A DNA stretch of 64,000 nucleotides, taken from NCBI RefSeq assembly GCF_000174435.1, contig NZ_ACJN02000003.1, positions 1,008,263-1,072,262 of the forward strand, read 5' to 3'. Below the pieces are notes generated by a model. That model saw only the letters and a program-made list of their open reading frames with translations, was not told the origin of the DNA and did not search any database. The position numbers and the translations under genes were made by a program. This DNA is from Desulfonatronospira thiodismutans ASO3-1. Its GTDB lineage: Bacteria > Desulfobacterota > Desulfovibrionia > Desulfovibrionales > Desulfonatronovibrionaceae. Positions 20,853 to 44,968 of the stretch are shown piece by piece; the stretch's first letter is position 1, and the number at the start of each line of letters is the position of its first letter.

Positions 20853-20888
20853 TTTTTAACCTTTAAGCTTGGAAGTTATCGAGTGTAG

Positions 20889-21432: not shown

Positions 21433-21472
21433 AAATTTAACCTAAAAACCTACTAACAAGGTCAACTTTGTA

Positions 21473-21515
21473 AGGCCGGGCACAGCTGCACTCAAGCACT
21501 GTCCCGGCCTTTTTA
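21473..21515 (+). terminator. Hairpin plus T-run between small genes
   Basis: AGGCCGGG pairs with CCCGGCCT, with an inner ACAG/CTGT stem, followed by TTTTT and the ACGTTCAAC motif. Confidence 0.75.
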
Positions 21516-21544
21516 CGTTCAACACCATAAAAGGAGGTTTCCCC

Positions 21545-21706: not shown

Positions 21707-21716
21707 CCGGCGCATG

Positions 21717-21750
21717 ATCCCAAGGCTGAACACAAGTCTTCGGGATTTAT
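21717..21750 (+). terminator. Hairpin between small genes
   Basis: ATCCC pairs with GGGAT with a partly paired interior, followed by TTATTACGTCAAAAC, then AAAGGAGG of the next gene. Confidence 0.5.
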
Positions 21751-21774
21751 TACGTCAAAACAAAAGGAGGTTTC

Positions 21775-22008
21775 ATGAAAATGTATGGCAGGGATGTTTC
21801 AGACCTTAGTGTTCACGAAATCAACAAACTGTTTCGCCAGTATGACGAGTCACACAAGTGGCCTGTCTGCAACCAGTTCAACGCCACAGACAGGGCCATC
21901 GGGCGTCTCAGGCGCAATATCCTGCCTCACGTCGGACCCACCGGCGGTATCGAGTACGCCTACATGCTGGATGAGGAAATAAGTCAGATTGTCAATACCA
22001 TCATCTAA
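21775..22008 (+). CDS. Small island protein, unknown
   Basis: The 77-residue protein reads MKMYGRDVSDLSVHEINKLFRQYDESHKW and ends with an acidic helix. AAAGGAGG precedes the ATG. The composition suggests a soluble helical protein. I do not recognise a family. Confidence 0.62.
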   Translation: MKMYGRDVSDLSVHEINKLFRQYDESHKWPVCNQFNATDRAIGRLRRNILPHVGPTGGIEYAYMLDEEISQIVNTII

Positions 22009-22038
22009 CCCAGTAATCTCAAAACAGGAGGTAAGATC

Positions 22039-22749: not shown

Positions 22750-22761
22750 CCCTTCCCTTTT

Positions 22762-22785
22762 CCCGGTCATAACCCGGGCTTTTTT
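22762..22785 (+). terminator. Hairpin plus T6
   Basis: CCCGG pairs with CCGGG around a 7-base loop, followed by C and six T. Confidence 0.72.
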
Positions 22786-22819
22786 ATGTCCAAATTCCAT
22801 ACCTATAGAGGAGGTTTTT

Positions 22820-23134
22820 ATGGCGTTACTGATCACCACCCAGCCCTATGCCCAGCAGGAAATCATCAGGGGGATCACCAGGGTTATCTGCGAGCACAGC
22901 CCCAATTCCAGGCGTAAGTTCCAGGAGAAGCTGCACAACCTTGCAGCGCTGCCCAGTACAGACGTGGTCATTACCGGCTACACCGAGGGGTTCTCCCATC
23001 CTGAGTTCACTCTGGCCTGGTACAGGCAAAACGGCAACCCGGACCTGCATCCTTTGGAGAGGCAGGAGGGTCCTTTCATGGTCGGAGTGATGGTCTTTCA
23101 TGACTTCGAGGACTGCTGGTGCACGCACACATAA
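22820..23134 (+). CDS. Uncharacterised island protein
   Basis: The 104-residue protein (MALLITTQPYAQQEIIRGITRVICEHSPNS...) has a helical N-terminal half and a C-terminal part with W, H and C residues (VMVFHDFEDCWCTHT). GAGGAGG precedes the ATG. The hairpins on both sides mark it as one unit of the series. No family is recognised. Confidence 0.6.
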   Translation: MALLITTQPYAQQEIIRGITRVICEHSPNSRRKFQEKLHNLAALPSTDVVITGYTEGFSHPEFTLAWYRQNGNPDLHPLERQEGPFMVGVMVFHDFEDCWCTHT

Positions 23135-23146
23135 AACCAGGTTCAA

Positions 23147-23177
23147 GGGCCGGGGCGAAAATGTCCCGGCCCTTTTT
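23147..23177 (+). terminator. Hairpin plus T5
   Basis: GGGCCGGG pairs perfectly with CCCGGCCC around a 10-base loop, followed by TTTTT and GCGTTTAAAC. Confidence 0.8.
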
Positions 23178-23207
23178 GCGTTTAAACACCAACAAAGGAG
23201 GTACAAG

Positions 23208-23711
23208 ATGAATACTCAGGAAGCGCTGCAGGTTCTAAAGCCCGATGCAGCCACTCTGGAGGCACTGAAGCAGGCCTACCGTGCAGCAGCCCGCAAGTAT
23301 CACCCGGACATCAATCCCCACGGCGAAGAGCTCATGAAGCTCGTCAACGCTGCCTATGACCTGCTTGTATCCAGTCTTGGAGAGTGGGCCATACATGAAA
23401 ACGCAGCAGAAGATCCGGGTGAGATGTCCCTGGACGAAGAGATGTCCGGCATCCTCAGCAAGATCGGTCACTTTCCGGAACTTCTGTTCGAGATCTGCGG
23501 CACCTGGCTCTGGGTCACCGGCAATACTTACTTACACCGCCAGGCACTCAAAGACGCAGGGCTCTTTTTCGCACCCAAAAAGAGGGCCTGGTTTTGGAGG
23601 CCCCCTGAATCCAAAACCAGCAGCAGAGGACAGTGGGACCTGGACAAGATCAGAACTGTACACGGCTCCCGTCCCATCAAAAACCAGTCCCTTCAGGGAC
23701 TAAATGCCTAA
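23208..23711 (+). CDS. J-domain protein
   Basis: The 167-residue protein has an N-terminal DnaJ domain with the HPD motif at residues 32-34 (YHPDINPHGEE), preceded by LKQAYRAAARK and followed by LVNAAYDLL. The C-terminal 90 residues are unlike known DnaJ parts and end in a Trp-rich segment (KKRAWFWRPPES). J-domains stimulate the ATPase of DnaK; on mobile elements they probably recruit host chaperone to a replication or assembly protein. ATG 23208 has AAAGGAGG; a longer reading has none. A hairpin AGTCCC/GGGACT spans its stop. Confidence 0.85.
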   Translation: MNTQEALQVLKPDAATLEALKQAYRAAARKYHPDINPHGEELMKLVNAAYDLLVSSLGEWAIHENAAEDPGEMSLDEEMSGILSKIGHFPELLFEICGTWLWVTGNTYLHRQALKDAGLFFAPKKRAWFWRPPESKTSSRGQWDLDKIRTVHGSRPIKNQSLQGLNA

Positions 23712-23730
23712 CTACAAGGAGGTATGCGGC

Positions 23731-24168
23731 ATGATGCTTTTATCTCTGCAATGGGCAAACCCTTATACCCAGCCGCCTGCAGGCCAGGACTGGGTCCTCT
23801 ACTGGAGCGTGGCAAGCAAAACCGGCCTGGGTGTAGGTGAAGAACTGATCCAGAAGGCCAAGGCTGAGGGCTATGATGTTTCCGGTTACCGCCTGACATT
23901 TACTCCCAAAGCCTTCACCCAGTTCAAACCTCTAAAGCCCGAATCTCTGGCTTCCATGCGCTACAAACGCCTGCGGACCAAGCTCAAGAAAAAGATCTCC
24001 ATGCCAGGGTTCGTAGAGGAGATTCTGGATTGGAAAAAGGATTATTACGACCTGGAGACCTGCCGCAAGCAGTACGAGCGCAAAGTGCAGATCAACAAGG
24101 AACTGGAGCAGGACCTTGCCGAGAAGTATCCACCCCACAAATACGTGGAGATACAAGGAGGCGAGTAG
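23731..24168 (+). CDS. Uncharacterised island protein
   Basis: The 145-residue protein (MMLLSLQWANPYTQPPAGQDWVLYW...) has a basic C-terminal half of alternating charge (KRLRTKLKKKISM, DYYDLETCRKQYERKVQINKELEQDL) that is probably helical. ATG 23731 was preferred because AAGGAGG lies upstream; the earlier ATG 23704 overlaps the J-domain gene. No catalytic motif is seen. Confidence 0.6.
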   Translation: MMLLSLQWANPYTQPPAGQDWVLYWSVASKTGLGVGEELIQKAKAEGYDVSGYRLTFTPKAFTQFKPLKPESLASMRYKRLRTKLKKKISMPGFVEEILDWKKDYYDLETCRKQYERKVQINKELEQDLAEKYPPHKYVEIQGGE

Positions 24169-24237
24169 TGCAAAAGGTATCCTGGTCTGGATAGCCAGTT
24201 GGTGAGCTCAAAACAGAGGTTCGTAGCATAGTTTAAC

Positions 24238-24259
24238 GCCCCGGCGGTCATGCCGGGGC
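24238..24259 (+). repeat. 8-bp GC hairpin in intergenic unit
   Basis: GCCCCGGC pairs with GCCGGGGC around GGTCAT. No T-run follows; the next ribosome binding site AGAGGTGA begins 11 bases later. Confidence 0.6.
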
Positions 24260-24279
24260 AAAACCACCCAGAGGTGAAG

Positions 24280-24519
24280 ATGAAATTCTCAGACGTTGTA
24301 ACAGAATCTGGACAGTACAAGGTCACTGTAACTGGTCCAGACCACAGAGGCTTTATCCGGTTTGTGAATTCTAAAGACCAGGTGATGTCCTGGATGGTCA
24401 GGACTGACGGCCGAGTGTGGAAGGGCTTTACACTTCACCCGACCACCACTGGAATCAAAAAGGGTTCGAAAGCCTTTGTAGCTGACTGGTGTTTGGACTG
24501 GGCAGCAAATGGCTTCTAA
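24280..24519 (+). CDS. Small island protein, unknown
   Basis: The 79-residue protein (MKFSDVVTESGQYKVTVTGPDHRGFIRF...) looks mostly beta-stranded and has Trp residues spaced along it. ATG 24280 is preceded by GAGGTGA. I do not recognise a family. Confidence 0.58.
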   Translation: MKFSDVVTESGQYKVTVTGPDHRGFIRFVNSKDQVMSWMVRTDGRVWKGFTLHPTTTGIKKGSKAFVADWCLDWAANGF

Positions 24520-24567
24520 ACATCCCTGCGTCCTTCGGGGCAGGGTAAAATATTAAGGAGGTAGAGT

Positions 24568-24777
24568 ATGTACAGAAGCAGAGAGCAAGCCAGACGTACA
24601 GAATGTCCATTTGCAAAAAATGGGTTCCTGGCAGCTCCACCTGAAGTTGAGTTTGGTCCAGAAGCCAAGATGTGTTCAGCAGAAGACTGCATGATGTGGC
24701 GGGAAACAAGAGAGTTTGAAGGCAGAAACATTCACCCGGTAGGCTGGTGCGGCCTTGCCGGAGAACCAAGGGGGTAA
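24568..24777 (+). CDS. Small Cys-containing island protein
   Basis: The 69-residue protein has four cysteines (TECPF, KMCSAEDCMMW, GWCGL) that could bind zinc or an Fe-S cluster. AAGGAGG precedes the ATG, and CCCTGC/GCAGGG (24524-24545) forms a hairpin in front. The stop is two bases before the next start, so the two are probably coupled. Function unknown. Confidence 0.62.
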   Translation: MYRSREQARRTECPFAKNGFLAAPPEVEFGPEAKMCSAEDCMMWRETREFEGRNIHPVGWCGLAGEPRG

Positions 24778-24779
24778 TT

Positions 24780-24983
24780 ATGTCAAAGACCTGCAGGAAC
24801 TGCCTGAACAACCAGGAATTCTCTGACGTAATGGTCAATGGCGTCCTGCTCAGGGACCCGCAGTACTGCCAGAGGGCGGACGAGATGCTGCCCAGGTTCG
24901 GCAATGCGGTAGTCCCGGTGCTGGATGACCGGGATGTGGATGTGTCTACAGACTGCCCATATTGGGAAGATGCGGACGAATGA
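24780..24983 (+). CDS. Small Cys-containing island protein
   Basis: The 67-residue protein (MSKTCRNCLNNQEF...) has CxxC at residues 5/8 and later single cysteines (YCQRAD, DCPYW), a likely zinc site. GGGGGT precedes the ATG, which lies next to the stop of the previous gene. Together the two form a cysteine-rich pair of unknown role. Confidence 0.62.
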   Translation: MSKTCRNCLNNQEFSDVMVNGVLLRDPQYCQRADEMLPRFGNAVVPVLDDRDVDVSTDCPYWEDADE

Positions 24984-25064
24984 GGGTATTCGCAGGTTTT
25001 TCAGTTATTTTCTGGTACAGAATTGCACCAGAAAATCCAAAATGAATGATTAAAGGAGGTGAAT

Positions 25065-25253
25065 ATGCCCAGTTCCAGAGCCAAATACAATGCCTACAAC
25101 AAACTACTTGTGGATATCATGAAAAGTGAGCTTCCTCTTGAAACCAAAAGAGAGATCACCCACGCCATGTCCCAGGAAAACATCCTGAACGGCACAGCAA
25201 AGGGCAAACAACTGTTCAAACAGGCCAAGAAGGCCAATAAGCAAAGGAGGTAA
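25065..25253 (+). CDS. Small basic island protein
   Basis: The 62-residue protein is highly basic and helical (MPSSRAKYNAYNKLLVDIMKS...KQLFKQAKKANKQRR). AAAGGAGGTGA precedes ATG 25065. DNA or RNA binding is suggested only by charge. The next gene follows after 3 bases. Confidence 0.6.
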   Translation: MPSSRAKYNAYNKLLVDIMKSELPLETKREITHAMSQENILNGTAKGKQLFKQAKKANKQRR

Positions 25254-25256
25254 ATC

Positions 25257-25457
25257 GTGGGGTACACACCTGAATTATCCAAAAACCACAGCCGTATATT
25301 ACGGCGCATTGCCTGGGCCGCAGGCGCACCTATGACTACAACCCTGGAAGCAATTTTCGACTGGCTTCCCTCAAAGATGGACGAGGAAAAGGTCTGTTCC
25401 AGCTGCAGGGACAAAGAGTTTTGTAATCAATGCCCATTCAATAAGCCGGACCAGTAG
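25257..25457 (+). CDS. Small island protein with Cys-rich C-terminus, GTG start
   Basis: The 66-residue protein starts with GTG after AAAGGAGG. The N-terminal half is helical (SKNHSRILRRIAWAAGAPM); the C-terminal half has CSSC and FCNQC, a likely zinc-binding knuckle. It ends base to base against the convergent terminase-like gene. Function unknown. Confidence 0.6.
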   Translation: MGYTPELSKNHSRILRRIAWAAGAPMTTTLEAIFDWLPSKMDEEKVCSSCRDKEFCNQCPFNKPDQ

Positions 25458-25997
25458 CTACCCCTCACCTCCAACCCTTAGCTCATGAACGCTCTTCCTG
25501 TTGGCCATGACCTGCTTATACATCTCCTGCCACTGATCCATTGTGACGGAGCCCGGATTAGCAGGCAGGACCACGGCGACTTTATTACCTACAGAGTTGT
25601 CAGGGCTGGTGACTTCCAGGCCCTGCTTATCAACCCAGGCGAAGTTGGCTTTCAGGTCAAATATCTGAGCTTGAGTATTCTTCTCATCATCCAGGAGCTG
25701 TGTGGCCCTCTGGGCTTGTATCCGCAACCTGGCTACCTGCAAGGCCCTGCGGACTTCTGGGTCCTTGAACAGAGCGACTGTCTCTTTTGATTCAGAGCTC
25801 TTGCCTACCTGCTCCCCCCACAGCAGCTGTTTGTCGATTACCCCGAGATAATACTGCAGACCGGCCAAGGTATAGGACATGCCTTGATCGTCGCAGCTGT
25901 CAAAGTAGGCTTCGATGGCCCGCAGCAGCTCATCCACGTTGGAGATCCGACCCTGATGCTGGGGCGGTACAGGAGGAGAAGTCTTTTCGTTTTTCAT
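25458..25997 (-). CDS. Small terminase-like protein, copy 2
   Basis: The 179-residue protein shows the same pattern as phage small terminases: DELLRAIEAYFDSC, YTLAGLQYYLGVIDKQ, VRRALQVARLRIQAQRATQLL and FDLKANFAWVDKQ. It is only distantly related to the copy at 17430-17873. ATG 25997 was chosen because GGAG lies upstream and the family pattern begins there; an upstream start at 26051 adds an unlikely Cys-rich leader. Two different TerS-like genes on one island, both opposite to the main operon, are unusual. Packaging-site recognition is inferred. Confidence 0.7.
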   Translation of the reverse strand: MKNEKTSPPVPPQHQGRISNVDELLRAIEAYFDSCDDQGMSYTLAGLQYYLGVIDKQLLWGEQVGKSSESKETVALFKDPEVRRALQVARLRIQAQRATQLLDDEKNTQAQIFDLKANFAWVDKQGLEVTSPDNSVGNKVAVVLPANPGSVTMDQWQEMYKQVMANRKSVHELRVGGEG

Positions 25998-26060
25998 GGC
26001 TTTGCTCCATAAGTTTGCAACCATTCTATAGTAACAATTAAAACAATGCAAGTGCGGTCA

Positions 26061-26097
26061 CAGGCCCGTCTCGATCATGAGGCGGACCTGTTTGTTT
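26061..26097 (+). terminator. Imperfect hairpin with short T-run
   Basis: CAGG-CCGTCTC pairs with GAGGCGG-CCTG, with one wobble and a bulge, and is followed by TTTGTTT. Confidence 0.5.
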
Positions 26098-26121
26098 CCA
26101 CATTCAACTAAGGAGGTCTTT

Positions 26122-26559
26122 ATGAAGGAAAGAGAAAAGGCAAAAACATTGCTGGATCAGCTTTATGCAATGGAGTCCAGCCCCGACTATGTCCTGTCCA
26201 GTCCTGAAGCCGCTGTGATCCAGCTACTGCCCTTTCGCAAAAAGAAGACGGAGAATTTTGTCGTCCTGTTCGTAGACAACAAAAACAGGATGATCTGCAA
26301 AAAAGTGGTGGCAAAAGGCACTGTTGATCAGATCCCGGTGTTTCCAAGGGAAATCATCAGGCATGCAATCTTGAAACAAGCTTCCGGCATCATCCTCGGA
26401 CATAATCATCCCGGTGGGGCCTCTGAACCGTCCAAACAGGACCGTGAATTGACCAGCAAAATCAAACGCATTGCTATGGAGTTGGGAATCCGGGTGCTTG
26501 ACCATATCATCATCTGTGACTCCGGTCATTTCAGCTTCCAGGAGAATGGATACCTGTAG
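26122..26559 (+). CDS. RadC-family JAMM/MPN+ domain protein
   Basis: The 145-residue protein is the catalytic half of RadC. The JAMM metal site is seen as H94 and H96 in GHNHPGG and D107 in SKQDREL. It lacks the N-terminal helix-hairpin-helix part of chromosomal RadC, as is normal for mobile-element versions. Such proteins occur with DUF932 and recombination genes on plasmids, and are sometimes called anti-restriction or repair factors, but no reaction is established. AAGGAGG precedes ATG 26122. Confidence 0.88.
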   Translation: MKEREKAKTLLDQLYAMESSPDYVLSSPEAAVIQLLPFRKKKTENFVVLFVDNKNRMICKKVVAKGTVDQIPVFPREIIRHAILKQASGIILGHNHPGGASEPSKQDRELTSKIKRIAMELGIRVLDHIIICDSGHFSFQENGYL

Positions 26560-26590
26560 CTCCCCCTTATCAACCATAACAGCGTTTAGT

Positions 26591-26623
26591 GCCCGGTCAG
26601 CATCGTGTTGGCCGGGCTTTTTT
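26591..26623 (+). terminator. Hairpin plus T6
   Basis: GCCCGG pairs with CCGGGC, with further internal pairs, followed by six T and GTTCAAC. Confidence 0.78.
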
Positions 26624-26654
26624 GTTCAACCAGAAACCACAGGAGGATTTTGCA

Positions 26655-27146
26655 ATGACTACATTAGCAGACATCGAAATGGAAATCGCCAACATCCTGG
26701 CAACGGCAGAGGAGTTGTCCGAGGACCAGCAGGAGGTGGCCCTGGAGTACTTGGATGAGCTGGCCATAGCCGAGTACGAAAAGATTGATGCTGTGGGTTA
26801 TGCAGTTCGTAAACGCCAGTCTGAGATCCAATTCCTGAAAGACGAGGAAGTCAGGCTCCGGAACAAACGCCAGGCCATGGAGAAAAGACTCTCTGATTTT
26901 AAGGCCTACCTGGTGGAACTCTTCCAGCGTGAGGAGATCCACAAGATCAAGGGAGTCAGCACAACAGCCTACCTGCGCCGCAGCAGCTCAGTGGAGGTGA
27001 CCGACATCTCTCAGCTGCCCTCTGATTACGTGGAGACCAGGATCGATTTTGTCCCCAGGAAGTCTCAGATCCGGGACGCCCTCAAACAGGGCCAGGAAAT
27101 CCCCGGAGCCAGGATGCAGGAGAAGCAGTCCCTGGTCCTGAGCTGA
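26655..27146 (+). CDS. Siphovirus Gp157-family protein
   Basis: The 163-residue protein matches Gp157: an N-terminal acidic segment (MEIANILATAEELSED), a long coiled coil (RKRQSEIQFLKDEEVRLRNKRQAMEKRLSDFKAYLVELFQ) and a C-terminal beta part with KIKGVSTTAYLRRSSSVEVTD and LPSDYVE. Family members lie next to phage recombinases and are thought to help DNA recombination or phage resistance in streptococci. Here it directly precedes a RecA-like ATPase. ATG 26655 has AGGAGG upstream. Confidence 0.88.
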   Translation: MTTLADIEMEIANILATAEELSEDQQEVALEYLDELAIAEYEKIDAVGYAVRKRQSEIQFLKDEEVRLRNKRQAMEKRLSDFKAYLVELFQREEIHKIKGVSTTAYLRRSSSVEVTDISQLPSDYVETRIDFVPRKSQIRDALKQGQEIPGARMQEKQSLVLS

Positions 27147-27174
27147 CCACAACCCTAAACCCCAAGCGGTCATG

Positions 27175-27210
27175 CAGCCCGTCATTCATCGTGAGTGGCG
27201 GGCTGTTTTT
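27175..27210 (+). terminator. Hairpin plus T5
   Basis: CAGCCCG pairs with CGGGCTG around an 17-base partly paired loop, followed by TTTTT. Confidence 0.72.
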
Positions 27211-27246
27211 GTTTCTAAAAACCTACTTTCAAAGGAGGAAATCAGT

Positions 27247-28335
27247 ATGTTCAAGAAAGCAGAAAGAAGGCAGTCAAAGTTAAGGTTCGGCATTGTCGGT
27301 CCCAGTGGATCTGGAAAGACTTACAGCGCTCTGTTGATAGCCCAGGGTCTTGGTGGCAGTGTTGCCCTGCTGGATACGGAACGTGGCTCAGGCTCTCTGT
27401 ATGCCGACCTGTGCGAATACGATGTAGCTGAACTGACCCCGCCTTTTAGTCCGGAGCGCTACACCCAGGCCATCAAGGAGGCTGAAAGGACCGGTTATGA
27501 AGTGCTCATAATCGACTCCCTTTCCCATGCCTGGTCCGGTGAAGGCGGCATCTTGGAGTTTGTGGACAGGGCCTCGCAGGCGCAGAAGAACAATTTTGCC
27601 GCCTGGAGGGAGGCCTCTCCCAAGCACAACGCCTTGGTGGACTCCATCCTGGGTGCCAACCTGCACGTCATTATAACCATGCGCAGCAAAACCGCCTGGG
27701 ACGTAGTCAAGGACGAGCGTACCGGAAAGACCCGCCCAGTCAAAATTGGCCTGGCACCTGTGCAGCGTGACGGCCTGGAATACGAATTCACCTGCGTACT
27801 TGAACTCTCTGTGGATGGGCATATTGCAACGGCCTCAAAGGATCGCACCGGCCTCTTTGATGGTCAGTATTTTCTGCCCAGCAAAGACACCGGCCAGATT
27901 CTCAAAGAATGGCTACAAGGTGGCCGCCCGGACAATGGGAACAAGGAGAATAAGCCTGCTGAGCCTAAGATAGACAGTGAAGTTGAGGCTGAGCCGGTAG
28001 CGGACCCTGCCCCTGCATCCAGGAAGAAAAGCCAGGATGTGTTTACCAAGAAAAAGCAGAGGCAGGAGGACAGGCCCCCGCAGCCGCTTACCCCGGAAGA
28101 TAATGGAGTAACTGTCGCAAGTCTTGTAAACACGATGCGAGAGCTTGGTCTTTCAGACAAGCTTGATCTCTATGAGGCGTACCTTCTGGGCAAGTACGGC
28201 AATGATCTGCGCAAACTGACCAAGGACCAGGTAAATGAGCAGTACCACAATCTGTGCCGCTGCAAGCGCGACCAGGAGCTCTTCCAGAGATTCGTCACCT
28301 ACCTGGACGGTTTGAGCAAGAAACAGGCTGCATAG
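27247..28335 (+). CDS. Phage-type RecA-like ATPase (Sak4-like AAA)
   Basis: The 362-residue protein has Walker A GPSGSGKT at residues 18-25 and Walker B VLIIDSLSHAW around D90, with LLDTERGS between, the layout of RecA/RadB-like phage ATPases. Residues 245-300 are a charged, Pro-rich linker, and the last 75 residues form a separate helical domain. Related phage proteins promote single-strand annealing or strand exchange with an SSB partner. With Gp157 and RadC it forms a recombination module. ATG 27247 has AAGGAGG upstream. Assignment to Sak4 itself is tentative. Confidence 0.82.
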   Translation: MFKKAERRQSKLRFGIVGPSGSGKTYSALLIAQGLGGSVALLDTERGSGSLYADLCEYDVAELTPPFSPERYTQAIKEAERTGYEVLIIDSLSHAWSGEGGILEFVDRASQAQKNNFAAWREASPKHNALVDSILGANLHVIITMRSKTAWDVVKDERTGKTRPVKIGLAPVQRDGLEYEFTCVLELSVDGHIATASKDRTGLFDGQYFLPSKDTGQILKEWLQGGRPDNGNKENKPAEPKIDSEVEAEPVADPAPASRKKSQDVFTKKKQRQEDRPPQPLTPEDNGVTVASLVNTMRELGLSDKLDLYEAYLLGKYGNDLRKLTKDQVNEQYHNLCRCKRDQELFQRFVTYLDGLSKKQAA

Positions 28336-34341: not shown

Positions 34342-36027
34342 CAATCAATGGAGCCACATTTTTCAATGTGGATGAGACCTCAAGACCAAGGAATCGGCCA
34401 CAATGACCTTCAAGCTTCAATGGAGCCACATTTAACAATGTGGATGAGACTTCTGCCTCACCTGCTGCGAGAGCTTTGAGGCGGTGCTTCAATGGAGCCA
34501 CATTTTTTAATGTGGATGAGACTGGGAGGACTACGGCGAAGCGGTTGTCGATATAATGCTTCAATGGAGCCACATTTTTCAACGTGGATGAGACTCGCCG
34601 CCGCCCTCATATTCACCAGTGCCAGGGTTGCTTCAATGGAGCCACATTTTTCAATGTGGATGAGACGTGCCCGGTGCCAGAATTGAAACCAAGCAAACCG
34701 TGCTTCAATGGAGCCACATTTTTTAATGTGGATGAGACTTGTCCGTATACTCACGGAGGTACACGGCACGGTAGCTTCAATGGAGCCACATTTTATAATG
34801 TGGCTGAGACCAGCTTTTCACGCTTGAAATCCTTGCAGTTGAGCCAGCTTCAATGGAGCCACATTTTTCAATGTGGTTGAGACTAAAGCGCATATTCCAG
34901 TGATACATGGCCTGAATCCTTCAATAGAGCCACATTTTTAAATGTGGATGAGACTAAATGCTGACACCATCCGGGACATGCTGGACGGGCTTCAATGGGG
35001 CCACATTTTTTAATGTGGATGAGACACCACCCACGCAAAGTCGTGTTCTTCGGAACCACGCTTCAATGGAGCCACATTTTTCAATGTGGATGAGACGATA
35101 GATTTCAGCTTCATCATCTGTTTGTAATGTGCTTCAATGGAGCCACATTTTTTAATGTGGATGAGACGAGATTGACGGTGAAGCCCTGCCCTATAACCAC
35201 CAGCTTCAATGGAGCCACATTTTTTAATGTGGATGAGACCAGAGCGCCCTGGGCATTTTCATCGTTGCTGGTGTGCTTCAATGGAGCCACATTTTTTAAT
35301 GTGGATGAGACCAATTCGGTCTCCACCGGAGTCAGATACCCATGCGGGCTTCAATGGAGCCACATTTTTTAATGTGGATGAGACCGTTATTTTCGTTGCC
35401 GGATTGATCGTAAACTGTAGCTTCAATGGAGCCACATTTTTTAATGTGGATGAGACCTTTGCGATAGGCGATCATGTGGTGGTGCGTTTTGCTTCAATGG
35501 AGCCACATTTTTTAATGTGGATGAGACGCCGGGTCTGGGCTCCCACTTATAGCCCATATGCTTCAATGGAGCCACATTTTTTAATGTGGATGAGACGTAT
35601 GGGAATACGAGATGACGAGTGCGTGATAATTGCTTCAATGGAGCCACATTTTTTAATGTGGATGAGACTTGCCCTGTGGGTCGCCCTGAGCTACCTGTGC
35701 GACGCTTCAATGGAGCCACATTTTTTAATGTGGATGAGACTGTGCCCATACGCTGTTTGCCACCCGCAATGGGGCGCTTCAATGGAGCCACATTTTTTAA
35801 TGTGGATGAGACGCTGCCCAAAACAAAGGTCGTCTGCCCCACCTGCAGCTTCAATGGAGCCACATTTTTTAATGTGGATGAGACCAAGGGGAAAGCGGTG
35901 GGTGATGTGTGAGCACATGCTTCAATGGAGCCACATTTTTTAATGTGGATGAGACATGGGGATTTTTGGCGTGCAGTAGTCCAGACAAATGCTTCAATGG
36001 AGCCACATTTTTTAATGTGGATGAGAC
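34342..36027 (-). CRISPR. CRISPR array, 24 repeats of 37 bp, 23 spacers of 32-36 bp
   Basis: The plus-strand repeat begins GCTTCAATGGAGCCACATTT and ends TTTAATGTGGATGAGAC, with CCACATT/AATGTGG as a 7-bp palindrome. Starts are at 34342, 34414, 34486, 34558, 34630, 34702, 34774, 34847, 34918, 34989, 35060, 35131, 35203, 35275, 35348, 35420, 35491, 35560, 35632, 35703, 35776, 35848, 35919 and 35991. Repeats at the left end carry mutations (the first lacks its first bases; others have TTTTTC, AACGTGG, GGCTGAG, GGTTGAG), while those from 35131 on are identical. So the leader is at the right and transcription runs on the minus strand, where the repeat ends ATTGAAGC, a usual crRNA 5' handle. I saw no spacer match inside this window, but did not align systematically. 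Confidence 0.97.
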
Positions 36028-36197
36028 TGTCTTCATGAAAAACCCCGTCATTTGGGGTGTTACGAGCCCTGCTACGCGAACCCCTTTCAAAACCTGAGAT
36101 ATTTAATTGTCAAAGAGCTAATGTTTCTTATAACTACCTGATTTTATTGCTGCGCGAACGTACCTATGATTTCCAACTGCTTGGGGTTCGCACCAGG
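36028..36197 (-). promoter_or_regulatory. CRISPR leader
   Basis: This AT-rich gap lies between csb2 and the conserved end of the array. On the minus strand TTGACA at 36108-36113 could be a -35 element. A terminator-like hairpin, ACCCC/GGGGT with loop AAATGAC followed by TTTT, occupies about 36038-36058, only 10 to 11 bases before the first repeat in the direction of transcription. Confidence 0.6.
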
Positions 36198-37634
36198 CTA
36201 TTCTACAGGTTGAAAAAGCCCCAAGCCGAAATGGCACCTTGCACCTAAAGCAAATGGCCCAGGCACAGCTGTGTTGAAGTGTATTATACATCCGTGTCCT
36301 CTGAATGGCCTCTCATCCCTCTTGCCCCTTGCAAATTCCATCCAGCGCAGAGGTTTTGGACCGGTGATTGTCCATTGTATCCAGTTTACAGAAGCAGGTT
36401 CAGGCAAACCATGGTACTCACATTCAAGTAATATCTCCTGTGTAAGCCAGTCTAAATAACTCCCACGTCCCTTGCGGTGATGCCTGGTTGTCACAAAAGG
36501 AGTTGCGCTGACCCAGGTTCTGGACAACTTAAAATTTGGCTGTTCCCTCATAGAAGACAAAATCAGGCTGGCATCTGGCTTGCCGTTGGACTGCCATATT
36601 GATCTCAATCTATCCAGGGCCATCAACTCGGATGAGTCAAACGGCTCTCTTGCTGTGATGACAAGACTGTCAATCCGTCCGTCATGATCCTCATCCAGAG
36701 GAAGAAAAAAAGCATGTCCATGACCTTCCAGTGGTGAACCATCAGCACTTTTTCCGCTGAATTTGCTGGAGACAAGCCCGGGATCGTCGCCCTGGATTTT
36801 ACGGTGAATACCCATAAGCTTCAGGCGGATTCTTTCAGCGAAATGTATGGATTCCTGGACCATGGGACGTACCCTGGAGTGAATCTCGTATTTAAACAGG
36901 CGGTATTCACGTCGTGACTCAAATCCTGCTCTTGAGGGGATGGTTCTGTTTAACCGGGATTTTTTGCGGGAGTAATCGATCCATTCAAGTGCCGGAGGAT
37001 GTGCCCAGCCCTGGTTTAGAAGATCCCTTGTGGAAAGGCAGATGGCTTCAAACCAGCTTAAATCACTGCTTACAGGGAGACTCTCATATTCACTTCTGGG
37101 CAGAACGCAGGCTATCTTTTCATCCTCGTATACAGAACTCTGACCTGCTGAATCACTTGGCAAACAGTCCCAGCTAAATGATGGAACATTGTCTCTTATA
37201 TTTACCTTCACCCAGGATTCGGATCTTCCCAGGTAGTTCAGCTCTTCAAGAAGAGTGCCCAGGTCAACCAGATGCTGCTCCTGCATAGAATTTTCGAATG
37301 CCATGTAAAGAGAGTCACCCTTATCCAGTGCGACAAAGGAGTCGAAAATCAACTGTTTTTTGGTGACGTCCTTTTCATTGCTGCTCTGGTAAGTTCTAAT
37401 GTGGGCAGTGGTGGCCTGGGGCAAAAGGTAAAAGGGCTTTCCTGATAATCCTTGCAGCACAGACTCAATCCTGGCCTGCTCCCAGTCGGGAAAACGTCTT
37501 TTCTGGATATCAATCAGTGCTCTTGCTAATCTGTAAGGGGAGGGAGGCCATTCCGCTTCACCTTCATTGACGTTTCTCCCCCAAGGATTGGCATGATATC
37601 GGCCTGCGGGAAAAGTAAACTCTAAAGCCAGCAT
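36198..37634 (-). CDS. csb2: CRISPR-associated Csb2 (Cas5-Cas6 fusion of type I-G)
   Basis: The 478-residue protein matches Csb2/GSU0054. It begins MLALEFTFPAGRYHANPWGRNVNEGEAEWPPSPYRLARAL, the Cas5-like RAMP part that binds the crRNA 5' end. The C-terminal part (VSATPFVTTRHHRKGRG, then WTITGPKPLRW and GFGLF-like GHFGLGLF) is the Cas6-like repeat endonuclease region with likely catalytic histidines in RHHRKG. It is the last cas gene of the leftward operon, 15 bases after csb1, and lies next to the leader. Length is normal. Confidence 0.92.
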   Translation of the reverse strand: MLALEFTFPAGRYHANPWGRNVNEGEAEWPPSPYRLARALIDIQKRRFPDWEQARIESVLQGLSGKPFYLLPQATTAHIRTYQSSNEKDVTKKQLIFDSFVALDKGDSLYMAFENSMQEQHLVDLGTLLEELNYLGRSESWVKVNIRDNVPSFSWDCLPSDSAGQSSVYEDEKIACVLPRSEYESLPVSSDLSWFEAICLSTRDLLNQGWAHPPALEWIDYSRKKSRLNRTIPSRAGFESRREYRLFKYEIHSRVRPMVQESIHFAERIRLKLMGIHRKIQGDDPGLVSSKFSGKSADGSPLEGHGHAFFLPLDEDHDGRIDSLVITAREPFDSSELMALDRLRSIWQSNGKPDASLILSSMREQPNFKLSRTWVSATPFVTTRHHRKGRGSYLDWLTQEILLECEYHGLPEPASVNWIQWTITGPKPLRWMEFARGKRDERPFRGHGCIIHFNTAVPGPFALGARCHFGLGLFQPVE

Positions 37635-37649
37635 AAGTCTTTTCCCTGC

Positions 37650-38624
37650 TTATGAAGTCTTGAGAACAGTCTCAGTGTTGATCTGGGTCACAGGTGGCTG
37701 TGCAAACAGCTCTTTATCCTTGCACTCCGTTATTTGATTCTGAACCGATTTCTTTAGCTCTGCCGAACCTGGAACTGTAAAGCCTTCTGGTTCCTTTACC
37801 ATTAAAGCGTTTCCATCTTTTAGTTCGAGGTCGCAGGCTGTTCGCAGCCGCAGGCCTCCTTCCAGAAAGCTGCGGATTTTATACAAACCCAGGCCAATCA
37901 GTAAATTTTCCGCCTCATCTCCCAGTTCGTAGGATCTTATCATTCCCAGATCAAAGTTAAAAAATGCCTTTATATTTGAGGCAGTATACTCCACTCGTTG
38001 ATATGGGACATTGCCATAAACATCCTTGTCGTGTTCAGCAGCCCGGATCTTGCCGGTGGGGTCAATGGGGTTGTTCTTCACACCACCGTATACAACTTCC
38101 TTGGCATCGATGGCCTCTATAAAGGAAGATACAGCCCTGGGCATCTTGACTCTCCCGTCCTCCAGGTTTGCCAGGAAAACACCATGCAGGATGGAGTTGA
38201 CATCATACTTGAAAATAGTTCTTGCGATTTTTCTCCAGTCAAGAGGTTTGCCCTTCTCGTAATCCGCCTCCTGCTTGAAAGCCTGCTGGAAATCCTTGTC
38301 AGTGATGATAAATGGAGAGTTAAGACGATGAGCCTCCATCAGGGAATTGGTCTTTGCATCCGTTGCACCCTCAAGGCTTACTCTGACATAAGGCAGACCG
38401 TCAAAGTCTTTGATCAGCTCGCTGTCAGGCCCTATTACAGTGCTCTCCAGCCTGTTTGCCATTGACTGGGGGGACTCAAGGACTATCTTCCTGGTTCCAT
38501 CTGGCAACAGATAGGTCCCTGCACCAATATCAGGGAAACCCGTAGGTTGAAAACGATCCCCCTGGACAGGCTCAAGGTCTGCCTCCAGCAAAAGCCTTTT
38601 GGCATTTTTTAACACTTCAAACAT
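37650..38624 (-). CDS. csb1: CRISPR-associated Csb1 (Cas7 of type I-G)
   Basis: The 324-residue protein matches Csb1/GSU0053, the Cas7 backbone subunit that polymerises along the crRNA. Visible family segments are RLLLEADLEPVQGDRFQPTGFPDIGAG, LESPQSMANRLES, AHRLNSPFI and the glycine-rich GLRLRTACDLEL near the C-terminus. It follows csx17 by 12 bases and precedes csb2 by 15, in one operon. Length is usual for the family. No truncation is seen. Confidence 0.93.
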   Translation of the reverse strand: MFEVLKNAKRLLLEADLEPVQGDRFQPTGFPDIGAGTYLLPDGTRKIVLESPQSMANRLESTVIGPDSELIKDFDGLPYVRVSLEGATDAKTNSLMEAHRLNSPFIITDKDFQQAFKQEADYEKGKPLDWRKIARTIFKYDVNSILHGVFLANLEDGRVKMPRAVSSFIEAIDAKEVVYGGVKNNPIDPTGKIRAAEHDKDVYGNVPYQRVEYTASNIKAFFNFDLGMIRSYELGDEAENLLIGLGLYKIRSFLEGGLRLRTACDLELKDGNALMVKEPEGFTVPGSAELKKSVQNQITECKDKELFAQPPVTQINTETVLKTS

Positions 38625-38636
38625 AAGACTCTCCTG

Positions 38637-40976
38637 TTATTCGGTTGGCATTTGGAGTACCATCTCTTCAAGAAGATTCTGGTTTTTTATCGGTACGATA
38701 AGGCTTGCAAGCAGTCTTGCAGGACTAAGGGGCTCATTGTAGCGGACAGGGAATGGACGTAGGTCTGAAATCTTTAGCCGCTGAACAGCCTTTGCGCACG
38801 CTTCTTCCACCCTCCCGGCATTCAATAGGCTGGACACGCTTCTTTCTCTTCTTATCTTGACGCCCCTGACATCACCAGGAACGTGGAGCAGCTTGAGCAA
38901 ACACCAGGTCCTGGATATTATTGACCTGGCAACTGGGTACTTCCAGGCTTTTTGTATCTTGATCAGGCCGGACTTTTTCCAGTCAATCAGTGTAACCCCC
39001 CACAACAGTTCTTCCATCTTGGCATCATCAGTCTCCTCATGCAAAAAAGGCATAAGATCATAGGGACTCACTGCTATAAGTCCTTGAAAAGGCATGGATG
39101 CAGCCTGTTTCCTCTCTGCATCCATCAGTCGGTAGCTTAAAAGATTGCCTATCCGTTCTGAGAAATCACTGCCGAACCAATGCTGGTCAGAGCTAAATTC
39201 AGCCCACTGCCAGGGGGTTCTGGCTGATACGCCTGCCATGTTGCTTCTAATGGGACCCAGTCTATCAGTGCCCTGGATTGATGCAATTGCAGCAGCTATG
39301 CGTATTTCCGGGCTGCCGTCGTCTGCCTGGAACACCCATCTGGGAGACAAACCATATAAAGGCTGTTGCAGCTTCGGGTCTTTATTTCTATCTCTTAGCG
39401 CCAGCAACTTTTCAAGCCTTCCAATTGATCTGATCAATTTGAGATAATTCAGGCTGTCAGGCTGAAGGGTACAGTTGAACAGATCCTCATCAATCTGTTG
39501 CCGGGCCTGGAGGTATGATGCAGGAGCCTTTTTGAAACTCAGCATAAATTGATCAACCCTGGACAAAACAGGATCAAGCTCGGAAAAAATCTCCAACTGG
39601 GGTTTGAAGCGAACTGGAATTTTCCCTGCAGGCAAAGCTATTTTATTGTCCCCTCTTCTTTTGAGGAAACCGTAGCGTTCAAAAGCGGATATCCCCCTGT
39701 CCACTCCCAGTGTGCCTACAGCTCTGGAAAACTCCAGTCCTGTCCCGGCTTGTCTGCGGCCTACTGAAGACCTGCCTTCCGAGAAGAGGTGCCTGACTTC
39801 AGTAAAGGATGCAAACTGCCCCCATAAGGGCAGCCAGATTTCTGTTTCCCCACCCTCTGGTTCGGTGTATTCGCTGGAAGTAAATCCCACAGGAGAGAAG
39901 TGTACAGTGAAAGGCCCGGTCAGCCTGGAACCCGCATTTCCACCCTGTCTTCTGACAACTGAGCTTGCCAGCACCAGGGTGCCCTCAAGAGTGAGTACAT
40001 AGTCCCAGGGGTTGGCCTTGAAGTCCTTTGCCTCCACCCCCATACCCTGGTTATAGCCGCCTGCTCTTCCTGGATCGAACTGCCCGGCCTTAACCTTGGG
40101 AAGCCCTTTGACAGGCTGGTTCCACAGGCTTGCTGCAAGATAGTCCTTTGCTGTTGAGCCATTGCCATCAAGTAGCAGGCTGGAGATGATCCTCATAAAA
40201 TTGTTTCCGAATTCCAACCTGCCATCATTGCCGTATGTTCCCAGGATACGGTGGGGCGTACGGGAACCGTCAGCATGAATTGCACAAAGGGCATCCAGCC
40301 AGGGCAGGCAGTTGTCCGGCAACCTGCTTCTGCATATTGGAACGATAATGTCTTTAGTTTTCTGCCGGACATGATCGTTATATTTGGTGCGCGCCTTTTT
40401 TATGCTGTTCCAGAGACACCTGTACAGGCCAGGCTCCTGGGATGAAAGGGCCTCTATCCTCTCCAGGGCAAGAAGCAGAGGGTCCTCGCTGGTCTTGTTC
40501 TTGACACTTTCAGCTTCTTTTAAAACAGCATCTTTGAGCTTTACGAGATCCTGCTGCTTTTTACCGGGGCTGGAATTTTTAATCATCGTTTCCAATACAT
40601 CCAGCAATTCTTGTCCCGTGTTCATTTGCTCTGCCCATTCAGGCCAGTTGAACACTGAAGTAATAGCCTGCTTGTACCCTGCAAAACGTGGATCATTTGT
40701 CTGCAGAATGCTGTCGATACCCTGCCTTGAATCACCTGGATAGAATCCGCTTCCTCCGTTCCAGGGGGTGATGATCGGAGTTGGTACATATTCGTTGCAG
40801 AAAAAGGAAAGGATGTCATCCGGTGCCAGGGTAGTCCTGATTTTGAACGTCCCTTGATCCCAGCATCCCAAGGCTTCATGATCCTTCTGTTCGGAGATAA
40901 GCCTGAATACCGCCAGGGCTTTTAAATACCCGGACAGTGGTCGAGTGGTGCACCCCGGCAACTTGAATTCATTCAT
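38637..40976 (-). CDS. csx17: CRISPR-associated Csx17 (large subunit, Cas8-like, type I-G)
   Basis: The 779-residue protein matches Csx17, the large Cascade subunit of type I-G that should recognise the PAM and recruit Cas3. The N-terminal LPGCTTRPLSGYLKALAVFRLISEQ is the typical opening. Further signatures are TPWNGGSGFY near residue 55, NPWDYVLTLEGTLVLASSVVRRQG near 325, and FPLWGQ/VRHLFSEGRSSVGRRQA near 395. It overlaps cas3 by 8 bases. No nuclease motif is apparent. Confidence 0.92.
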   Translation of the reverse strand: MNEFKLPGCTTRPLSGYLKALAVFRLISEQKDHEALGCWDQGTFKIRTTLAPDDILSFFCNEYVPTPIITPWNGGSGFYPGDSRQGIDSILQTNDPRFAGYKQAITSVFNWPEWAEQMNTGQELLDVLETMIKNSSPGKKQQDLVKLKDAVLKEAESVKNKTSEDPLLLALERIEALSSQEPGLYRCLWNSIKKARTKYNDHVRQKTKDIIVPICRSRLPDNCLPWLDALCAIHADGSRTPHRILGTYGNDGRLEFGNNFMRIISSLLLDGNGSTAKDYLAASLWNQPVKGLPKVKAGQFDPGRAGGYNQGMGVEAKDFKANPWDYVLTLEGTLVLASSVVRRQGGNAGSRLTGPFTVHFSPVGFTSSEYTEPEGGETEIWLPLWGQFASFTEVRHLFSEGRSSVGRRQAGTGLEFSRAVGTLGVDRGISAFERYGFLKRRGDNKIALPAGKIPVRFKPQLEIFSELDPVLSRVDQFMLSFKKAPASYLQARQQIDEDLFNCTLQPDSLNYLKLIRSIGRLEKLLALRDRNKDPKLQQPLYGLSPRWVFQADDGSPEIRIAAAIASIQGTDRLGPIRSNMAGVSARTPWQWAEFSSDQHWFGSDFSERIGNLLSYRLMDAERKQAASMPFQGLIAVSPYDLMPFLHEETDDAKMEELLWGVTLIDWKKSGLIKIQKAWKYPVARSIISRTWCLLKLLHVPGDVRGVKIRRERSVSSLLNAGRVEEACAKAVQRLKISDLRPFPVRYNEPLSPARLLASLIVPIKNQNLLEEMVLQMPTE

Positions 40977-43314
40977 TCTTCGATCCCTGGTTCATGCTTG
41001 CTCTCCAGTCAGCTATTCGGAGCAAGGCTTCAAGATAAGCTAACCGGAACGGACCAAGATGCGGGTCATCCCTTAGCTTTATCATTCTTTCCAGCCAACT
41101 GGAGCCACTTTTGCCGTGTCCCAGTTCCATTACTGACAGATCCAGGATGGTTTCAGGCATGACAACCCCATTGCCCAGATCCGCTTCAGGTAAGACGTCC
41201 CCGTCCCATACTCCCCTTGCGTGCCGTACATCCTGATCAGGTCTGGTCTCTGTGGGCAGAGATCTGATTGAAAGCCTTACCTTGCCGTGATGGGCTGCTA
41301 CCAGGTATACAGCCAGATCGGGCAGGTTGTTTTGCATCATGGCTAATCCTGATGCCAGTTCATGCCTGAAGCCCTTTCTGGAATAGCTTACCGAACTGCT
41401 GGATGTTTTACCCCATAGCTGGTTATATGGTGGAGGTTCGGCGTATCTGGTAACCCCTTCCTGAAAAATTTTATGAGCTTTGCCGCAGTCATGCCACTGA
41501 GCGGCAAGTATAAGGGCTTCCTTCATTTTTACATCAGACAGGTTTAATACCTCAATGAGATCCTTAAGCTCAGCAACGACAGCTTCAGTGTGATCGGACA
41601 GGGACTGCCATGTGGATATGGTAATAAAATCGTCATCGTACCCTTCTGAAACTTTATCAGGCTTTGACAGAACTTCTGGAAGATCTTTTTTATCTCCTGT
41701 CCAGCCAAGGGTTGAAGAATAGCCGCCATCTTTGACGTCGAGAAAAAGTACAGCACCTGGAAAAAGCTCCGCATTCCTCCAGACTCTGACCCAGTTCTTT
41801 TCCAGATGATCCCAGCGCCATTTGCGCAGGTCTGAGGCACTGGCAATGGAGCCAATGGATACACTGCAAAGCTCTTCTCTTGCAGGGGGAGGCTCGTCGG
41901 GCTTGGGACCGTTTTCATCCAGGAGTCTCCAGAAAACCTGTAAAGACTGCTCATCAGAGTCTCTGATAAACCTGGACGCATCTATATCCATGCCTGCAAG
42001 GTCTGGAGTAGTATCAAAAAGATCCACCAGGTCTTTTTTTCTGATAACCTGAAGGTACTGAGGGTTCTCTTCCAGGCCCGGAAGACTGCCTGGCTGAGCG
42101 TCCTTAAGTTTTTCAAGGATCTGCCTGGACCTTGCGAGCTCTTCTGCTTCATACGGGGCACAAGCGCCTTTTTTGTCCAAGTCAATGTCCACCCAGAAAA
42201 TCCGGGCATCCTGTTCCAGGCCATCTCTGTTGCATCGCCCGAAGCGCTGGATAAGCGAGGCCCATGGTCCAAGCTCAGTGATTAGAACGGATGCGCTGAC
42301 ATCGACACCTGCCTCGATTGCCTGGGTGCAGACGCAGATGGTTCCTTCTCCGCCAGGAGTTTTCAAAAGCTCATCCATAGCTTTTTTTCTGTCCCCCGGA
42401 CGAAAACGGGAATGGATCAAAACAAGATCAGCACTTGGTTTTTTCTTCTGGAGCTCATTGAACAGGGCCTGAGCACGTTTTACGGTATTGGTCACCACCA
42501 GAGTTCTTGTGCCGGGATGATGCTCCTTTAAAGTCAGGTCAACCAGTTTCCTAAGGTCTGTGGACTGGCAGGGTGCTTTTTGTATGGGTTTTGATGCTGA
42601 TATCCTTTGCTTTACAGCCGGTTGCTTTTTGTCCTCGTCAGTCAATGATAATGTTTCAAGGGAGTCGAGAGCAGAAGAAAAATCCACCGTATCAAGCCAG
42701 TCTTTTTTGAGTGTAGCACTCATCCAGATGGATCGTACCGGATATGCGGTTTTGAAAAAGTCTCTGAATGCCTGCAGCTGGGCAGTTGTTGCCAGGGCAT
42801 CACCCATAAGCTGGACCTCGTCCATTACCCAGAGGCAGTCATTATTCATAAGTCCGAAATGAACAGGCCAGCGGTAGCGGCTCATGGAGTAGCCTCTGTT
42901 TAGAGCCCTGGACAGCAGCTGATCCTGGGTGCCTATCAAGATCTGATCATGTTCTGGAAACATATCCCAGCTGCTATCCAGATCACCGCCCATCAGGACA
43001 TGAACAGTGGGCTCTTTTCCGGCATCATACACTCCATGCTCCTTGAGGCTGGTTATCCATTGCCGGGCATTTTGGGCGGTCTGCTCAACAAGGACCCGCA
43101 TTGGCAGGCAATACACCAGTCTTCTGGGAGTTCTCTCATCTGAGTGGAATCTTTTGAAGAGCCAGGCAAGTACTACAGAAGCTGTCTTTCCAAGCCCCGT
43201 GGGTATCCCAAGAAGATCAGGCCAGTCCCGACCTGAAAGGCTGACCTGGTAAGGGTAGGGATCTAAAGCTTCCCCTATTGCCCGTTTAAAAAAACTATCA
43301 AATCCGGTATACAT
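40969..43314 (-). CDS. cas3: CRISPR-associated Cas3 helicase-nuclease (type I-G form)
   Basis: The 781-residue protein has the SF2 helicase first and the HD nuclease last, the order of the type I-G Cas3. Walker A is GIPTGLGKTASVV (K43), motif II is DEVQ at 165-168, and motif VI lies at QRFGRCNRDG near residue 370. The HD domain has AAQWHDCGKAHKIFQ near 610 and LVAAHHGKVR further on. After Cascade opens target DNA it degrades the displaced strand. It is the first gene of the operon. All key motifs are intact. Confidence 0.95.
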   Translation of the reverse strand: MYTGFDSFFKRAIGEALDPYPYQVSLSGRDWPDLLGIPTGLGKTASVVLAWLFKRFHSDERTPRRLVYCLPMRVLVEQTAQNARQWITSLKEHGVYDAGKEPTVHVLMGGDLDSSWDMFPEHDQILIGTQDQLLSRALNRGYSMSRYRWPVHFGLMNNDCLWVMDEVQLMGDALATTAQLQAFRDFFKTAYPVRSIWMSATLKKDWLDTVDFSSALDSLETLSLTDEDKKQPAVKQRISASKPIQKAPCQSTDLRKLVDLTLKEHHPGTRTLVVTNTVKRAQALFNELQKKKPSADLVLIHSRFRPGDRKKAMDELLKTPGGEGTICVCTQAIEAGVDVSASVLITELGPWASLIQRFGRCNRDGLEQDARIFWVDIDLDKKGACAPYEAEELARSRQILEKLKDAQPGSLPGLEENPQYLQVIRKKDLVDLFDTTPDLAGMDIDASRFIRDSDEQSLQVFWRLLDENGPKPDEPPPAREELCSVSIGSIASASDLRKWRWDHLEKNWVRVWRNAELFPGAVLFLDVKDGGYSSTLGWTGDKKDLPEVLSKPDKVSEGYDDDFITISTWQSLSDHTEAVVAELKDLIEVLNLSDVKMKEALILAAQWHDCGKAHKIFQEGVTRYAEPPPYNQLWGKTSSSSVSYSRKGFRHELASGLAMMQNNLPDLAVYLVAAHHGKVRLSIRSLPTETRPDQDVRHARGVWDGDVLPEADLGNGVVMPETILDLSVMELGHGKSGSSWLERMIKLRDDPHLGPFRLAYLEALLRIADWRASMNQGSKNE

Positions 43315-44944: not shown

Positions 44945-44968
44945 GTTCGAGTCCGGCCCCGGGCACCA
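44945..44968 (+). other. attR (24-bp copy of the tRNA-Leu 3' end)
   Basis: This is an exact copy of 9756-9779 without the rest of a tRNA gene, so it is the distal recombination site. The chromosome continues with AGAAAATCAAGGG. Confidence 0.92.

What the first reader, a model, noticed from the sequence alone, without database searches (positions are those of the whole stretch)
34342..43314. Interference-only type I-G CRISPR-Cas on the mobile island
The order cas3 (helicase first, HD last), csx17, csb1, csb2 and a 24-repeat array is type I-G (former I-U). Cas4-Cas1 fusion and Cas2, usual in this subtype, are absent from the 44-kb interval around it. Yet repeats at the leader end are identical while distal ones decay, which indicates past polarised acquisition. 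So adaptation must have worked in trans or the adaptation genes were lost recently.
Basis: partly seen in the sequence, partly recalled or inferred. Interest (0 to 1): 0.75.

Follow-up and report, generated by a model that had tools for sequence, protein, structure and literature searches.

The report
Mobile I-G CRISPR with borrowed leader
A mobile island in a sulfate-reducer-group bacterium carries a DNA-cutting CRISPR system (type I-G) without the genes that record new invaders, and the DNA switch next to its memory bank looks like that of a different system in the same cell (type I-C), so it probably borrows that system's recorder.

Summary
Confirmed: a complete type I-G effector operon (cas3g-cas8g-cas7g-csb2, 36198-43314, minus strand) with a 24-repeat array (34342-36027) and no cas1/cas2. 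It is cargo of a 35-kb tRNA-Leu island (exact 24-bp att repeats at 9756 and 44945). A sister island in the same genome carries a type I restriction system in the corresponding place. The whole genome has Cas1 only in other subtypes; no Cas4-Cas1 fusion was found. This is not a recent loss or broken assembly: the nearest relatives, in several host lineages and islands, also lack adaptation genes.

New: the leader is of type I-C kind. Leaders of I-G systems with Cas4-Cas1 carry GCGCTCGC half-sites; I-C leaders carry GGTTCGCG. All five arrays of the window's own clade carry or closely approach the I-C half-site, and none of the 13 cas1-less arrays checked matches the I-G leader model. Eight of these arrays have shorter spacers (about 35 nt) than 22 native I-G arrays (36-39), near I-C (34). 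Best reading: this mobile I-G lineage lost its own adaptation genes and is extended in trans by hosts' type I-C Cas4-Cas1-Cas2. Acquisition itself was not shown, no protospacer was found, and only 4 of about 14 hosts hold I-C today.

The parts
9756..9779 (+). attL: 3' end of tRNA-Leu(TAA), GTTCGAGTCCGGCCCCGGGCACCA
   Evidence: tRNA
10000..11205 (+). tyrosine integrase of the island
   Evidence: Pfam Arm-DNA-bind_3, Phage_int_M, Phage_integrase
13926..28335 (.). island backbone: primase-helicase (Prim-Pol/DUF3987) in two ORFs, two small-terminase-like genes (17430-17873 and 25458-26051, minus strand), DnaJ-like, RadC, Gp157/Gam-like, AAA_24 (Sak4-like); no capsid, tail or conjugation gene found among the ORFs scanned
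34342..36027 (-). CRISPR array, 24 repeats of 37 nt (sense GTCTCATCCACATTAAAAAATGTGGCTCCATTGAAGC), 23 spacers of 32-36 nt; leader end at 36027, oldest end at 34342
36028..36197 (-). leader, I-C type (I-C leader HMM 37.0 bits; no match to the Cas4-Cas1 I-G leader HMM)
36153..36192 (-). leader motif M1: inverted half-sites TGCGAACC ... CGTTCGCG (sites at -165 and -133, one mismatch each)
36075..36082 (-). leader motif M2: GGTTCGCG, exact, at -55 from the first repeat (most frequent place in I-C leaders)
36198..37634 (-). csb2 (Cas5-Cas6 fusion of type I-G), 478 aa
   Evidence: TIGR02165, PADLOC Cas56g
37650..38624 (-). csb1/cas7g, 324 aa
   Evidence: PF09617, TIGR02570
38637..40976 (-). csx17/cas8g1, 779 aa
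   Evidence: TIGR04113, 724 bits
40969..43314 (-). cas3g helicase-HD, 781 aa
   Evidence: TIGR02621, Cas3_HD
44945..44968 (+). attR: exact 24-bp copy of the tRNA-Leu 3' end

Best explanation
This is a mobile, interference-only type I-G system, exchangeable defence cargo of a family of tRNA-targeting, satellite-like islands. SHOWN: effector, array, att sites, absence of cas1/cas2 here and in the nearest relatives, replacement of the cargo by a type I restriction system on a sister island, and a leader of I-C type. INFERRED: crRNAs are processed by Csb2 and guide Cas8g/Cas7g/Cas3g to cut rival DNA, as in characterised I-G systems. INFERRED and the main proposal: the lineage lost its Cas4-Cas1/Cas2 and its array is now extended in trans by the type I-C Cas4-Cas1-Cas2 of whatever host the island enters, because its leader carries the I-C half-sites (GCGAACC...GGTTCGC, then GGTTCGCG at -55) in place of the I-G ones (GCGAGCGC...GCGCTCGC). 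In a host without I-C, such as G022, the array would be a fixed memory. I-C acquisition uses a GAA/TTC motif (PMC6519985) that lies within the TTN PAM reported for I-G interference (PMC9638904), so spacers chosen by I-C would be usable.
For: Leaders: models built from 31 I-C leaders (those of the hosts G000, G062, G066 and G172 left out) and from 19 Cas4-Cas1 I-G leaders. The window scores 37.0, L024 43.1, L028 36.3, L029 14.0 and L030 14.6 bits on the I-C model and nothing on the I-G model; 6000 random windows reach at most 7.9 on the I-C model. The Cas4-Cas1 leaders behave the other way: all 19 match the I-G model and none scores above 6.6 on the I-C model, and four native I-G leaders fetched later score 22-34 on I-G. 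M2 lies at -55 in window, L024, L028 and L030, as in 23 of 35 I-C leaders. The host's own III and I-F leaders lack the motifs. L031, the nearest I-G with Cas4-Cas1, has an I-G-type leader, so the change goes with the loss. In L024 the leader-array unit is inverted relative to the operon, and the motifs stay with the array. Spacer length: means of 8 arrays 33.7-35.25 against 35.9-38.7 for 22 native I-G arrays, no overlap, p = 3e-7; I-C in this order averages 34.2. The host holds a complete I-C locus with a 40-repeat array (TIGR03640, 500 bits). Island cargo swap.
Against: No acquisition was observed and no protospacer was found, so the PAM is untested. I-C Cas1 is present in only 4 of about 14 hosts of this lineage, near the order's background (84 of 348 genomes), so co-occurrence gives no support. 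I-C repeats are 32 nt and these are 37 nt; a repeat ruler would have to tolerate that (PMC8092290 raises the same difficulty for VI-B/II-C). Leaders of the second cas1-less group (Mailhella type) match the I-C model only weakly (2.9-18.9 bits; several within reach of random windows). The leader switch is one or two evolutionary events, so the clade members and the arrays in the spacer test are not independent. Spacers average 0.6 nt longer than I-C spacers.
Confidence: 0.62

Rival explanations
1. Fossil memory: spacers were taken up by a native I-G Cas4-Cas1/Cas2 before that module was lost, or in hosts that have one, and the array has been frozen since.
For: I-G systems with Cas4-Cas1 occur in the same order (L025, L026, L101); G022 has no Cas1 at all in a 99% complete genome.
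Against: The leader lacks the I-G half-sites present in native leaders; spacers are shorter than in any native array; 13 leader-end repeats are identical, and L024 holds two near-identical spacers, as from repeated uptake.
Confidence: 0.15
2. The shared leader motif is a binding site of a transcription regulator or nucleoid protein common to these hosts, not a signal for the integrase.
For: The half-sites are palindromic and far from the repeat; IHF-like host factors are known in I-E/I-F leaders (background cited in PMC10504553).
Against: Native I-G leaders of the same order and phylum, and of other phyla, show the same layout with a different half-site, so the sequence follows the adaptation module and not the host; the host's III and I-F leaders lack it.
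Confidence: 0.13
3. Acquisition in trans by another Cas1 in the cell (I-F, III or I-E).
For: G000 also holds I-F-like and type III-like Cas1; G061 has an I-F-like Cas1; four gut relatives have an I-E-like Cas1.
Against: The own I-F leader shows neither motif and its spacers are all 32 nt; the III cas1 region carries a transposase insertion; the III leader scores at most 3.4 on the I-C model.
Confidence: 0.07
4. Cas4-Cas1/Cas2 exist but were missed (assembly gap, or elsewhere in the genome).
For: The genome is 97.7% complete; several relatives are fragmented MAGs.
Against: G022 (2 contigs, 99%) has none; no Cas4-Cas1-like match in about 14 host genomes of the lineage, while the same search finds the fusions in other I-G genomes (G068, G070, G071).
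Confidence: 0.03

Closest known systems
Type I-G CRISPR-Cas (former I-U) with Cas4-Cas1 fusion and Cas2
   Same: Effector genes, order, helicase-HD Cas3, Csb2, repeat ending CATTGAAGC with 12 nt after the stem.
   Different: No Cas4-Cas1/Cas2; array next to the effector genes in three arrangements across the lineage; I-C-type leader; spacers about 2 nt shorter.
Type I-C CRISPR-Cas of Desulfovibrionales
   Same: Leader half-sites and their spacing; spacer length near 34-35.
   Different: Effector and repeat (32 nt) unrelated to those here.
Type VI-B array extended by II-C Cas1 in Flavobacterium columnare (PMC8092290)
   Same: Locus without cas1/cas2 served in trans by another type, shown there by cas1 deletion.
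   Different: There the leaders share only poly-A/T regions; here a specific half-site appears to have been exchanged, and the locus is mobile.
Provirus-encoded I-B without cas1/2/4 in haloarchaea (PMC12596717); plasmid CRISPR-Cas without adaptation (PMC9071438)
   Same: Interference-only system on a mobile element, presumed to use host adaptation.
   Different: There donor and user are the same subtype with near-identical repeats (I-B), or unspecified; here donor and user differ in subtype.

Membership tests
Type I-G CRISPR-Cas | Csx17/Cas8g, Csb1/Cas7g and Csb2 (Cas5-Cas6) above curated cut-offs | tested here: met
   TIGR04113, TIGR02570, TIGR02165
Type I-G CRISPR-Cas | Cas3 with C-terminal HD | tested here: met
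   TIGR02621, PF18019 at 586-717
Type I-G CRISPR-Cas | Cas4-Cas1 fusion and Cas2 (usual, not needed for the effector assignment) | tested here: not met
   Absent from island and genome; the Cas1 matches found belong to other loci
Type I-G CRISPR-Cas | Leader of the Cas4-Cas1 I-G type | tested here: not met
   No match to the I-G leader model
Array served by type I-C adaptation | I-C-type leader motifs at I-C positions | tested here: met
Array served by type I-C adaptation | I-C Cas4-Cas1-Cas2 in the same cell | tested here: met
   For G000; only 4 of about 14 hosts of the lineage
Array served by type I-C adaptation | Spacers from TTC-flanked protospacers | tested here: inconclusive
   No protospacer found
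Array served by type I-C adaptation | Loss of acquisition on deletion of I-C cas1 | not testable with these tools
   Needs an experiment
Phage satellite | tRNA att sites, integrase, primase, small terminase, no capsid genes | tested here: met
   both small-terminase matches are modest, and not every island ORF was scanned
Phage satellite | Packaging by a helper phage | not testable with these tools
   Needs an experiment

The most novel reading that the evidence does not exclude
A mobile CRISPR lineage has re-keyed its leader from the I-G to the I-C integrase signal, so that any host with the common I-C adaptation module writes new spacers into the island's own array: piracy of another subtype's memory-writing machinery by a selfish element.
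Probability: 0.5. Interest if true: 0.82.

Novelty: new variant of a known kind. Interest (0 to 1): 0.68.

Why it matters
How interference-only CRISPR systems on mobile elements gain spacers is mostly assumed ('in trans') and rarely tied to a specific donor. Here the donor can be named from sequence, and the proposed recognition signal is a short half-site that can be exchanged experimentally. It also gives paired, subtype-specific leader signals (I-C GGTTCGCG, I-G GCGCTCGC at about -55) that may help to assign orphan arrays to an adaptation module.

Tried and rejected
Repeat length as a marker: dropped, because native I-G arrays of the same phylum also have 37-nt repeats. Enrichment of I-C among hosts: not seen. 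Protospacers: whole-array searches of phages, plasmids and 348 genomes of the order gave no credible target; the best ungapped match (sp19, 29 of 35) lies in mutS of a congener (gene named from its sequence by eye) and is taken as chance. Six seed patterns in viral contigs gave nothing. Csx17 in viral contigs gave no relative. No structure prediction was run, since every effector protein had a strong family match.

Full report
1. The thing itself. The four genes on the minus strand at 36198-43314 are a complete type I-G effector, followed by a 24-repeat array at 34342-36027. Read in the operon sense the repeat is GTCTCATCCACATTAAAAAATGTGGCTCCATTGAAGC. The leader is 36028-36197, between csb2 and the array. 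The 13 repeats at the leader end are identical; the 11 distal ones carry up to 4 changes.

2. The island. tRNA-Leu ends at 9779, and its last 24 bases recur exactly at 44945-44968; an integrase starts at 10000. The island is therefore 35.2 kb, not 44 kb. Its backbone has a primase-helicase, two small-terminase-like genes, Gp157/Gam-like and Sak4-like AAA proteins, but no capsid, tail or conjugation gene was found among the ORFs scanned: it resembles a phage satellite, which is inference.

3. Cargo exchange. A second island of the same backbone (81-94% DNA identity in blocks, up to 97% in protein) lies in the same genome at tRNA-Pro (C1, about 1093373-1134289, 49-bp att repeats). In the position corresponding to the I-G module it carries HsdM, HsdS, a GmrSD-like protein and HsdR, a type I restriction system. 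In another family of the order, G022 has a related island (integrase 48% identical, AAA 52%) at tRNA-Ser with the I-G genes at 61-75% identity (a 15-bp att repeat).

4. No adaptation genes, and not recently lost. G000 has four Cas1 matches: one I-C (TIGR03640, 500 bits), two at a type III-like locus and one at an I-F-like locus (the last two typed by size, order and repeat only). The nearest relatives L024, L028, L029 and L030 and the Mailhella-type group (L033, L034, L036, L094-L096, L099) show no cas1/cas2 beside the operon; most other complete I-G loci do. L028-L030, L033 and L034 are contigs that end close to the operon on one side or both. The Cas8g tree places window, L024, L028, L029 and L030 together (SH-aLRT 96), with L031, which has Cas4-Cas1, as sister (98), and the Mailhella-type group next (80). 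So there were one or two old losses. Across their host genomes no Cas4-Cas1 fusion was found; in G022, G063, G250, G646 and G623 no Cas1 at all was detected, of which only G022 is near-closed.

5. The leader. Thirty-five distinct I-C leaders, nearly all from this order, share GCGAACC(C/T)..AAGC..CCGG.AGGTTCGCG at about -175 to -135 and GGTTCGCG at -55. Leaders of I-G systems with Cas4-Cas1, from several phyla, have the same layout with GCGAGCGC..GCGCTCGC and GCGCTCGC at -54 to -58. The window leader has the I-C half-sites (one mismatch at -165 and at -133, exact at -55). Profile scores separate the groups: on the I-C model the window clade scores 14-43 bits and on the I-G model nothing; native I-G leaders score 6.5-86 on their own model and at most 6.6 on I-C; 6000 random windows reach 7.9. 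The 19 native leaders were the training set of their model, but four fetched afterwards score 22-34. The Mailhella-type leaders have GGTTCTCG and score 2.9-18.9 on I-C and nothing on I-G; in G066 the I-C leader and the I-G leader both carry GAGAACCTGAAAT. In L024 the array with its leader is inverted relative to the genes, which shows that the motifs belong to the array and not to the end of csb2.

6. Spacer length. Eight cas1-less arrays average 33.7-35.25 nt; 22 native I-G arrays average 35.9-38.7, without overlap (p = 3e-7; arrays are related, so the p-value overstates). I-C arrays of the order average 34.2. Repeat length does not discriminate.

7. Mechanism. The proposal is that type I-C Cas4-Cas1-Cas2 recognises the island leader and writes spacers into it. 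It fits the leader, the spacer length, the host's complete I-C locus and the PAMs from the literature (I-C GAA/TTC, PMC6519985; I-G TTN, PMC9638904). Against it stand the different repeat lengths, the lack of any enrichment of I-C among hosts, and the absence of direct evidence of acquisition. Trans use of another type's Cas1 has been shown for VI-B/II-C (PMC8092290) and inferred widely (PMC8482600, PMC9071438, PMC12596717); I found no report of an I-G array served by I-C in the papers searched, which is not proof of absence.

8. Host. One relative contig (146713 bp) is the same in a named Candidatus Mailhella genome (L036) and in G247, 'same order' as the window's genome; Mailhella is Desulfovibrionaceae, so the host belongs to that order. 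This is inference.

Noticed in passing
window 13926-16486: The primase-helicase (Prim-Pol plus DUF3987) is split over two overlapping ORFs, with DUF3987 interrupted between them; the corresponding place in the G022 island holds a single 878-aa ORF. The island's replication gene may be broken or naturally split.
   Followed up: partly
L016:12651-17126 (G000 C2, about 722650-727125): A type III-like locus has two Cas1-like ORFs separated by two minus-strand ORFs that look like an IS21-type transposase pair.
   Followed up: no
L136-L138 (G000 C1 1093373-1134289): Sister island at tRNA-Pro with type I restriction-modification plus a GmrSD/Schlafen-AlbA protein as cargo; a third copy of the 49-bp att sequence lies 4 kb further on, which may mark a tandem element.
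   Followed up: partly
L139-L140 (G000 C5, about 35 kb): Further relatives of the island backbone (RadC, Gp157, AAA_24 at 43-82%) with another integrase, so the genome holds at least three such islands or remnants.
   Followed up: no
L024:14956-15496: Two spacers of the G022 array (first and fifth from the leader) differ by only 2 bases over their shared length, as if the same site of related invaders had been taken up twice.
   Followed up: partly
window 35168-35202 (spacer 12) and L097/L033 spacer 2: Spacers of two distant cas1-less I-G arrays align at 24 of 35 positions (shared run GAAGCCCTGC on one strand), possibly aimed at a related gene.
   Followed up: no
L214-L215 (G448): Two I-G-like effector sets in tandem (csb2, csb1, csx17, cas3 twice), one strongly divergent; L039 has a similar tandem.
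   Followed up: no
window 2167-2220, 54034-54188 and 60644-60877: Arrays of short repeats of 7, 8, 16, 21 and 24 nt outside the island.
   Followed up: no
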